NCBI RefSeq assembly: GCF_018070025.1
Contig: NZ_JAGPYQ010000001.1
Coordinates: 2,914,001-2,978,000 of the forward strand
Direction of reading: 5' to 3'
Source: Streptomyces liliiviolaceus
Lineage (GTDB): Bacteria; Actinomycetota; Actinomycetes; Streptomycetales; Streptomycetaceae
DNA length: 64,000 nt
Positions 20,208 through 20,623 of the stretch are shown piece after piece (positions within the stretch are counted from its first letter, which is position 1; each line of letters begins with the position of its first letter). Below the pieces are notes generated by a model. The model did no database searches. It was not told the origin of the DNA and was given only the letters and a program-made list of their open reading frames with translations. Both the position numbers and the translations under genes were made by a program.

Positions 20208-20468
20208 GGGGCAACTCCGAACAGTTCGGGAAAGCGGTCCCGCTGCCGCACTCTAGGTCGACGCATACCGAGGAGTACGAGGTTTGAGTTATATCGCTGT
20301 TATCAAAGGGTGGCGAGGGAGTTGTGATGTCCCTTAGCGGCCCTTACGCGAAGTAACCTTTGACCTTTGTCCAGCGTTTGCCGGTGCGGCGCGGGGAGCG
20401 ACACTCAGTGCCGGAGCGTAGCCGAAAGCGCGTCGCGCCCCGCTCGGCCGCTGCGGTACCCTGACGCC
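20208..20468. promoter_or_regulatory. Divergent promoter region, cytochrome gene and leuS leader
   Basis: 261 bp between the cytochrome start and the leuS leader peptide. An AT-rich patch (about 20281-20310, TTTGAGTTATATCGCTGTTATCAAA) probably holds the minus-strand promoter. On the plus strand TACCCT (20457-20462) lies 6 nt before the leader ATG and is the likely -10. No other gene is seen. Confidence 0.4.
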
Positions 20469-20507
20469 ATGCGTGCCGTACGCCTTCTGCTTAGTGAGCC
20501 GCGCTGA
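20469..20507 (+). CDS. leuS leader peptide (12 aa, three Leu codons)
   Basis: Short frame encoding MRAVRLLLSEPR, ending TGA. Three consecutive Leu codons (CTT CTG CTT) include two CTT, a rare codon at this GC content. A -10-like TACCCT ends 6 nt before the ATG, so the transcript would start at the ATG and the peptide would be read from a leaderless 5' end. Two hairpins and a U tract follow before leuS. Ribosome stalling at the Leu codons when charged tRNA-Leu is scarce would change the folding of the following RNA. Confidence 0.75.
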   Translation: MRAVRLLLSEPR

Positions 20508-20513
20508 TCACAC

Positions 20514-20576
20514 CCGGTCGTCGGAAAACCGCGACCGGCATCGGCGCGGCGCCCCCTCCTGTGCGAGGGGTTTTTT
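20514..20576 (+). promoter_or_regulatory. leuS transcription attenuator
   Basis: First hairpin: CCGGTCG (20514-20520) pairs with CGACCGG (20532-20538), with an inner CGG/CCG around AAAA. Terminator: CCCCTC (20553-20558) pairs with GAGGGG (20565-20570), followed by TTTTTT at 20571-20576. An alternative pairing exists: GCCGCGC at the end of the leader peptide (20498-20504) is fully complementary to GCGCGGC (20544-20550), which lies between the two hairpins. Mutually exclusive folds and a U-tract terminator 48 nt before the leuS ATG are the layout of peptide-leader attenuation. Confidence 0.8.
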
Positions 20577-20623
20577 CATTTCCTGAGCCGCTGGCAGAGA
20601 CGATCGATGGAGCTTTGAGGATC

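What the first reader, a model, noticed from the sequence alone, without database searches (positions are those of the whole stretch)
20457..20623. Leaderless leader peptide and attenuator upstream of leuS
Seen: a 12-codon frame with three adjacent Leu codons (two rare CTT), a 7+3-bp hairpin, a stem with TTTTTT, and a 7-nt complementarity (20498-20504 with 20544-20550) that could make exclusive folds. A -10-like TACCCT lies 6 nt before the leader ATG, so the ribosome would start on the 5' end of the RNA. Inference: leucine or tRNA-Leu charging sets leuS transcription by stalling. Peptide-leader attenuation is known for amino-acid operons in actinobacteria; a leaderless leader peptide driving a synthetase gene is the less usual part.
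Basis: partly seen in the sequence, partly recalled or inferred. Interest (0 to 1): 0.75.

Follow-up and report, generated by a model that had tools for sequence, protein, structure and literature searches.

The report
Known leucine-sensing attenuator before leuS
The start of this leuS transcript is a known kind of leucine-sensing switch, a tiny leucine-rich reading frame followed by a transcription stop signal; here it turns out to be shared by many actinobacteria and to place its two RNA hairpins end to end instead of making them compete for the same bases.

Summary
Window 20469-20507 encodes MRAVRLLLSEPR*, 6 nt after TACCCT, followed by an apical hairpin, a terminator with six T, and leuS at 20624. 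It is already published: predicted in S. coelicolor and S. avermitilis in 2005, and RNA-seq of S. lividans TK24 (2021) reports the identical peptide upstream of leuS, transcribed leaderless.

What I add: the element lies upstream of leuS in 162 of 238 loci read, in 15 of 28 families of a class sample, and upstream of both leuS types. P2 does not compete with the terminator for bases: it ends 0-3 nt before the terminator stem. The trpE and trpS attenuators of this genome do overlap in the classical way; ilvB leaders share the end-to-end layout. Leu codons stand 14, 11 and 8 nt before P2; the last is CTT in 142 of 146 distinct elements, although 47 leuS genes use CTT 0 times in 3550 Leu codons.

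Best reading: a stalled ribosome lets P2 form, and P2, flush against the terminator, blocks its closure sterically. The steric step is inference.

The parts
20457..20462 (+). -10 element TACCCT
   Evidence: TAnnnT 6 nt (125) or 7 nt (21) before the leader start codon in 146 distinct elements; the detector favours elements with such a motif
20469..20507 (+). leader ORF leuL, MRAVRLLLSEPR*; start codon probably also the transcript 5' end
   Evidence: identical peptide reported leaderless in S. lividans TK24 (PMC8079986)
20484..20492 (+). control codons CTT CTG CTT (Leu6-8)
   Evidence: Leu codons 14, 11 and 8 nt before P2; last one CTT in 142 of 146, CTC in 4
20498..20508 (+). P2 5' arm (end of the leader ORF, includes the UGA stop)
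   Evidence: 11 bp with 20540-20550; covariation
20514..20538 (+). apical hairpin inside P2 (7+3 bp); variable among relatives, with no room for it where the P2 loop is shortest
   Evidence: P2 loop length 6 to 53 nt
20540..20550 (+). P2 3' arm
20553..20576 (+). intrinsic terminator: stem 20553-20558/20565-20570, U tract 20571-20576
   Evidence: (terminator-like site)
20624..23506 (+). leuS, leucyl-tRNA synthetase, 960 aa
   Evidence: PF13603 editing domain 3.6e-60, PF00133, PF08264

Best explanation
A ribosome-mediated transcription attenuator of leuS. Transcription starts at the A of the leader ATG (published for the S. lividans ortholog). A ribosome loads on the 5' end and translates 12 codons. 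With charged tRNA-Leu it reaches UGA, covers the 5' arm of P2, and the terminator forms: transcription stops before leuS (inferred). When charged tRNA-Leu is short it stalls on the Leu run; the P2 arm, 8-14 nt downstream, stays wholly or partly open and P2 forms behind RNA polymerase (inferred from spacing). P2 does not take bases from the terminator. It is a GC-rich helix whose foot stands 0-3 nt from the terminator foot, so it probably prevents the terminator from closing inside the RNA exit channel by occupying that space (inference). leuS is then transcribed. Shown: anatomy, conservation, covariation, non-overlap, codon bias, fixed spacing. Inferred: stalling, direction of regulation, steric step.
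For: Element in 162 of 238 leuS upstreams (157 by the detector; 5 more by covariance model), in 47 of 47 same-genus loci read (L001-L036, L131-L141). P2 and T both predicted by RNAalifold on 49 hand-picked sequences, 11 of 17 pairs with both-side changes; counted structure: 12 of 19 pairs with both-side changes, 55 cells against 12.9 in shuffles, 0 of 500. P2-T gap 0, 1, 2, 3 nt in 93, 27, 25, 1 of 146 by folding the downstream hairpin. Leu codons at fixed 8/11/14 nt found without asking for Leu. SD-like motif before the leader in 1 of 146. CTT 0 of 3550 Leu codons in leuS of 47 loci. T 5' arm free of upstream pairing in the stalled state, unlike trpE and trpS. The leuS covariance model also finds 27 of 30 ilvB leaders at E up to 0.01 and neither of the two trp loci. 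Codon replacement in the M. tuberculosis ilvB1 leader abolished induction (PMC13236596, section 10 part 1 read), which fits stall = antitermination.
Against: No expression, 5'-end or termination data for this strain. The steric step has no direct test, and I recall riboswitches in which a helix close to a terminator does not stop termination. At equilibrium T is formed even with P2 in place (145 of 146 above 0.9), but the classical trp leaders give the same answer, so that test does not discriminate. Elements were selected by pairing: the detector required the first six P2 pairs and the letters C, G at the third and fourth position, so the percentage paired is inflated and the invariance of those letters is partly built in. 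For S. coelicolor ilvB, replacement of the putative control codons had no effect on regulation (cited in PMC1262725). In the ilvB leader of this genome the T 5' arm is not free in every state: 0.04 for a stall on the early codons, 0.59 for a stall on the last Leu codon. A stall on Leu8, the best conserved codon, would cover about 4-5 nt of the P2 foot by the usual footprint (recalled), which weakens the steric model for that codon.
Confidence: 0.6

Rival explanations
1. Classical attenuation with base-pair exclusion: an antiterminator that shares a strand with the terminator, as in trp, missed here.
For: The 2005 paper calls it a classical attenuator with antiterminator and terminator hairpins (PMC1262725, passages; figure not held). 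For Corynebacterium ilvB-II an antiterminator between the loop of the first stem and the 3' side of the terminator is proposed (PMC10272879, section 12). For M. tuberculosis ilvB1 the authors state mutually exclusive folds (PMC13236596).
Against: Before the T 3' arm is made, the T 5' arm is unpaired in the Leu-stalled leuS RNA (mean 0.065, above 0.5 in 2 of 146; window 0.03), whereas the same test gives 0.70 for trpE and 0.99 for trpS of this genome. Best upstream partners of the T 3' and 5' arms are no stronger than shuffled (-10.46 vs -10.38; -6.94 vs -7.96 kcal/mol, 54 representatives), while the P2 control is (-20.76 vs -13.69). In 27 of 146 the P2 loop has only 6-13 nt, little room for a third strand.
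Confidence: 0.12
2. Ribosome docking: P2 loops out the RNA so that the ribosome stalled on Leu8 sits at the P2 foot, next to the terminator, and the ribosome body itself blocks terminator folding, as in close transcription-translation coupling.
For: Fixed 8-nt spacing of the last Leu codon to P2, kept when the ORF has an insertion (L122) or stops before P2 (8 of 146); the last Leu codon is the best conserved one; the P2 foot abuts T.
Against: No structural data; common descent could also keep the spacing.
Confidence: 0.18
3. P2 helps termination (stacks on T) and a ribosome stalled on Leu8 opens the P2 foot, so starvation relieves termination by P2 loss.
For: P2 and T are contiguous in 93 of 146; both form together in the lowest-energy fold.
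Against: A stall on the first Leu codon leaves P2 whole and would then repress leuS during starvation; a ribosome at the stop codon blocks P2 fully and would relieve termination when leucine is plentiful (both from footprint geometry, inference).
Confidence: 0.08
4. Constitutive 5' leader with a partial terminator; the Leu run has no regulatory role.
For: S. coelicolor ilvB codon replacements had no effect (as cited in PMC1262725).
Against: Leu codons in three fixed places, the last one CTT in 142 of 146, in front of genes that avoid CTT; leader codons more conserved than those of leuS (0.9484 against 0.856 identical codons given the same amino acid).
Confidence: 0.05

Closest known systems
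leuL2-leuS attenuator of Streptomyces lividans TK24 (PMC8079986) and the leuS attenuators predicted in S. coelicolor and S. avermitilis (PMC1262725)
   Same: Same gene, same place; the S. lividans peptide MRAVRLLLSEPR is identical; leaderless start, hairpin and uridine stretch reported
   Different: Nothing essential; in what I read of them (passages, part 1 of one section; figures not held) they do not state the helix spacing, the CTT bias or a spread beyond Streptomyces
Actinobacterial ilvB leaders, including M. tuberculosis ilvB1 (PMC13236596) and Corynebacterium ilvB-II (PMC10272879)
   Same: Leader ORF with branched-chain codons, its end in a helix next to the terminator; the leuS covariance model finds 27 of 30 ilvB leaders, weakly; probing of ilvB-II agrees with both predicted stems
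   Different: Codons such as LVVI instead of LLL; different gene; both papers describe alternative (exclusive) folds
trpE and trpS attenuators of the same genome
   Same: Leader ORF with TAnnnT just upstream, control codons, terminator
   Different: The terminator 5' arm pairs with the leader end or the spacer when the ribosome stalls: true overlap; not matched by the leuS model
LEU element of leuA (PMC1262725)
   Same: Leader with a Leu run in actinobacteria
   Different: Proposed pseudoknot whose base stem pairs the Leu codons with the SD of leuA (passages); S. lividans leuL1 lacks a typical terminator

Membership tests
Classical ribosome-mediated transcription attenuator (trp type) | Short leader ORF with a run of control codons for the cognate amino acid | tested here: met
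   LLL in the window; Leu codons at 14/11/8 nt before P2 in 121/127/126 of 146, and one nt nearer in 15 each
Classical ribosome-mediated transcription attenuator (trp type) | Intrinsic terminator before the structural gene | tested here: met
   conserved in A1
Classical ribosome-mediated transcription attenuator (trp type) | Antiterminator that shares a strand with the terminator | tested here: not met
   trpE and trpS of this genome, used as positive controls, meet it
Classical ribosome-mediated transcription attenuator (trp type) | Readthrough rises when the charged tRNA is scarce | not testable with these tools
   needs reporter or RNA-seq under leucine limitation
Leaderless leader-peptide leuS attenuator of Streptomyces (published) | Transcript 5' end at the leader start codon | not testable with these tools
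   sequence agrees (TACCCT 6 nt upstream, no SD); reported for S. lividans by others
Leaderless leader-peptide leuS attenuator of Streptomyces (published) | MRAVRLLLSEPR-type peptide directly upstream of leuS | tested here: met
Abutting branched-chain leader class (ilvB layout) | Leader end forms a helix that ends within a few nt of the terminator stem | tested here: met
   leuS gap 0-3 nt in 146 of 146, the detector allowing up to 4. For ilvB: longest abutting helix 8.73 against 6.34 in shuffles on average, better than 95% of shuffles in 12 of 30 loci
T-box leader | Covariance-model match to the T-box family | tested here: not met
   (only two tRNAs in the window at gathering score)

The most novel reading that the evidence does not exclude
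Actinobacterial leuS and ilvB leaders form a distinct attenuator class in which the antiterminator does not compete for bases with the terminator: a helix built from the leader end stands flush against the terminator foot and blocks its closure by occupying the RNA exit channel (or by docking the stalled ribosome there). In leuS the switch reads a codon (CUU) that leuS itself avoids. The class spans many actinobacterial families.
Probability: 0.35. Interest if true: 0.65.

Novelty: already known. Interest (0 to 1): 0.4.

Why it matters
The window adds one more example of a published attenuator. The comparative result is what may matter: attenuation is usually explained by two folds competing for one strand, and the leuS leaders of actinobacteria (and probably many ilvB leaders) seem not to do that. 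If the helix works by position alone, searches for alternative pairings would miss such switches, and the old report that S. coelicolor ilvB did not follow the classical rules could be re-examined with a concrete mutation, a spacer between the two helices.

Tried and rejected
Equilibrium test of exclusivity was dropped as evidence: the classical trp leaders of the same genome also show the terminator formed at equilibrium. Replaced by the truncated-RNA test with trp controls.

ilvB helix test (a helix of at least 6 bp within 3 nt of the terminator, 30 of 30) has no power: the shuffled mean is 6.34 bp. With shuffles, 12 of 30 loci beat 95% of them; L254, L262 and L269 show nothing (the terminator of L254 was also misjudged). 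Support for ilvB rests and on the model matches (27 of 30; missed L254, L273, L274).

The gap counts (0, 1, 2 nt in 108, 26, 12) include slipped terminator registers; one search replaces them.

5' hairpin GCGTGCCGTACGC in the leader (20471-20483): considered as a pause hairpin; not kept outside the genus, and changed in L018, L019 and L023.

T-box or other known RNA: no Rfam match at gathering score except two tRNAs elsewhere; the weak hits sX9 and BcKCsr2 are far below cut-off.

Promoter after the terminator that would bypass it: no TA dinucleotide lies between 20571 and 20623, so no TAnnnT; the sigma-70 scan found none, but it also missed the TACCCT promoter.

The detector gave one false positive (L230, score 23, no promoter), excluded by the score cut of 30. 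It missed five loci that the covariance model finds: L088 and L114 (irregular P2), L216, L235 (cut by the contig end) and L153 (I had cut out the wrong stretch, because the locus ends early). The model was built from 49 of the same elements; I did not rerun it on L001-L050 and L052-L060, which the detector had found in 60 of 60.

Rows dropped or not read: in the class sample (148 genomes) leuS upstreams of 108 genomes were read besides the window and G013; 38 were not fetched. A1 holds 49 of 157 elements, chosen by hand. One search used 54 of 146 (one per peptide). One search compared leader codons of 72 loci with 110 leuS codons of 66. One search checked 18 model hits that I chose among the strong ones: 17 lie before leuS, one (L284) is cut off by the contig end. 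In one search, 212 of 394 genomes match at E up to 1e-4, but about 60 of these are weaker than 1e-9 and may be ilvB leaders, and genomes without a match are listed only in part.

Papers: (antiterminator and steric terms) found nothing; the listings showed no report of the leuS element outside Streptomyces. Only open-access papers are held and I did not read those listed, so this is no proof of absence.

Full report
What is there. Window 20457-20462 is TACCCT; six bases later, 20469-20507 encodes MRAVRLLLSEPR* with Leu codons CTT CTG CTT. The end of that ORF, 20498-20508, pairs over 11 bp with 20540-20550 (P2). Two bases after P2 starts the terminator, CCCCTC/GAGGGG plus TTTTTT (20553-20576). 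leuS follows at 20624 (Pfam PF13603, PF00133, PF08264). The segment folds better than all 200 shuffles (z -3.69).

It is known. Seliverstov et al. 2005 (PMC1262725; passages read; figures not held) predicted classical attenuators upstream of leuS in S. avermitilis and S. coelicolor. The S. lividans TK24 reannotation (PMC8079986; passages, part 1 of section 14) lists leuL2 upstream of leuS with the identical peptide, transcribed leaderless and followed by a hairpin and uridines.

How far it spreads. I read 238 leuS upstream regions: 50 from close relatives, 80 named loci and 108 of a class sample. The element is in 50 of 50, 65 of 80 and 47 of 108, in all 162 of 238: 157 by the detector and five more by a covariance model. 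In the class sample it occurs in 15 of 28 families (14, and f12 through L235). Named holders include Streptomyces, Kitasatospora, Streptantibioticus, Jiangella, Micromonospora, Plantactinospora, Catellatospora, Prauserella, Kibdelosporangium, Amycolatopsis, Lentzea and Occultella. It was not found in the loci read from Cellulomonas, Actinotalea, Aeromicrobium, Isoptericola and Actinomyces. In 15 of 22 such loci a TAnnnT stands 4-9 nt before an ATG or GTG near the leuS start, as if leuS itself were leaderless there (a loose test without a control). In whole genomes the model matched 212 of 394 class genomes at E up to 1e-4 and the window's genome once only; about 60 of the 212 are weaker than 1e-9 and may be ilvB leaders. 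Of 18 strong hits checked, 17 lie before leuS. In genome G259 both a long-type and a short-type leuS gene carry their own copy (L280, L281).

It is not chance. A detector that does not ask for Leu codons hit 158 of 238 regions, against 2 of 238 reverse complements and 6 of 476 dinucleotide shuffles. P2 covaries: C-G becomes U-A together with Arg to Cys at the end of the peptide in Micromonospora and relatives, and CAC/GTG becomes CAT/ATG between L214 and L215. On 49 sequences RNAalifold finds P2 and the terminator together, and the counted structure has 12 of 19 pairs with changes on both sides, 0 of 500 shuffles as many. The elements were picked by pairing, which inflates the share of paired cells but not the kind of change. 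P2 stays even where the ORF stops before it (8 of 146 distinct elements), so the conserved end of the peptide reflects the RNA.

Control codons. Without asking for Leu, Leu codons lie 14, 11 and 8 nt before the P2 start (121, 127 and 126 occurrences among 146; 15 each one nt nearer). The last one is CTT in 142 of 146 and CTC in 4; the first varies and is not Leu in 8. In 47 leuS genes of the named loci CTT occurs 0 times among 3550 Leu codons. So the switch reads a codon that the regulated gene avoids. That control codons are chosen for sensitive isoacceptors is a recalled idea from work on E. coli; no call supports it here.

Base pairing is not exclusive. Folding the stretch after P2 puts the terminator stem 0, 1, 2 and 3 nt behind it in 93, 27, 25 and 1 of 146; in the window the gap is 2. 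With the ribosome on the first Leu codon and RNA made up to the terminator loop, the terminator 5' arm is unpaired (mean probability 0.065; above 0.5 in 2 of 146). The same test on the trpE and trpS leaders of this genome gives 0.70 and 0.99, as classical attenuation predicts. No other upstream partner of either terminator arm beats shuffles on average (54 representatives). A plain equilibrium fold does not discriminate and was discarded as evidence.

Sister element. The ilvB leader of this genome (MRTRILVLGKRVG, L239) has AGCGCGTCGG:CCGACGCGCT directly followed by CCCCTCG...CGAGGGGTTTTTT; its last Leu codon is CTT, 7 nt before that helix. Over 30 genomes the longest helix that abuts the ilvB terminator averages 8.73 bp against 6.34 in shuffles, and beats 95% of shuffles in 12 of 30 loci; three show nothing. 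The leuS model finds 27 of the 30 ilvB leaders at E up to 0.01 (best 5.9e-09) and neither of the two trp loci. So the layout is shared by many ilvB leaders, but not shown for each. In the ilvB leader of this genome the terminator arm is free for a stall on the early codons (0.04) but not for one on the last Leu codon (0.59). Three of five f6 loci carry the codons LVVI, the set reported for M. tuberculosis ilvB1, where changing them to Ala abolished induction (PMC13236596, section 10 part 1). Against this, replacement of the putative codons in S. coelicolor ilvB had no effect (cited in PMC1262725). For Corynebacterium ilvB-II, probing agrees with both stems, and the authors propose a different antiterminator (PMC10272879, passages and sections 12 and 14).

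Mechanism. Best reading: stalling on the Leu run leaves the P2 5' arm open, P2 forms, and because its foot is flush with the terminator foot the terminator cannot close in the exit channel. A ribosome that reaches UGA covers the P2 arm and lets the terminator form. The anatomy is shown; stalling, direction and the steric step are inferred. A variant in which P2 brings the stalled ribosome itself next to the terminator fits the fixed 8-nt spacing. Both predict that a spacer between P2 and the terminator destroys regulation.

Verdict. The finding is real and correctly read in outline, but already published, down to the peptide. The exclusive-fold idea should be dropped. The abutting layout, firm for leuS and likely for many ilvB leaders, is the part worth testing.

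Noticed in passing
window 16212-16311 and 17056-17155: Two tRNA-Ala (GGC) genes 844 bp apart inside a 100-nt direct repeat, 95% identical overall and identical over the tRNA.
   Followed up: partly
L239 (ilvB upstream) and L251-L279: Many ilvB leaders have a leader-end helix abutting the terminator, as in leuS; the leuS covariance model finds 27 of 30 of them.
   Followed up: partly
L280 and L281 (genome G259): One genome with two leuS genes, long and short type, each with its own leuL element.
   Followed up: partly
L171 (genome G119): Leader upstream of leuS reads MASQQQRLIGPR: a CAG run and CGC stand where most elements have Leu codons, only the last CTT is kept.
   Followed up: no
window 20469-20507: In 72 leaders of Streptomyces and close relatives synonymous codons are more conserved than in leuS (0.9484 vs 0.856 identical codons given the same residue), codons 1-5 included, with a 5-bp hairpin at 20471-20483; reason unknown.
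   Followed up: no
window 18906-20207, minus strand: Divergent 433-aa protein without Pfam match, next to a Nuo51/ferredoxin-like protein at 17281-18906.
   Followed up: no
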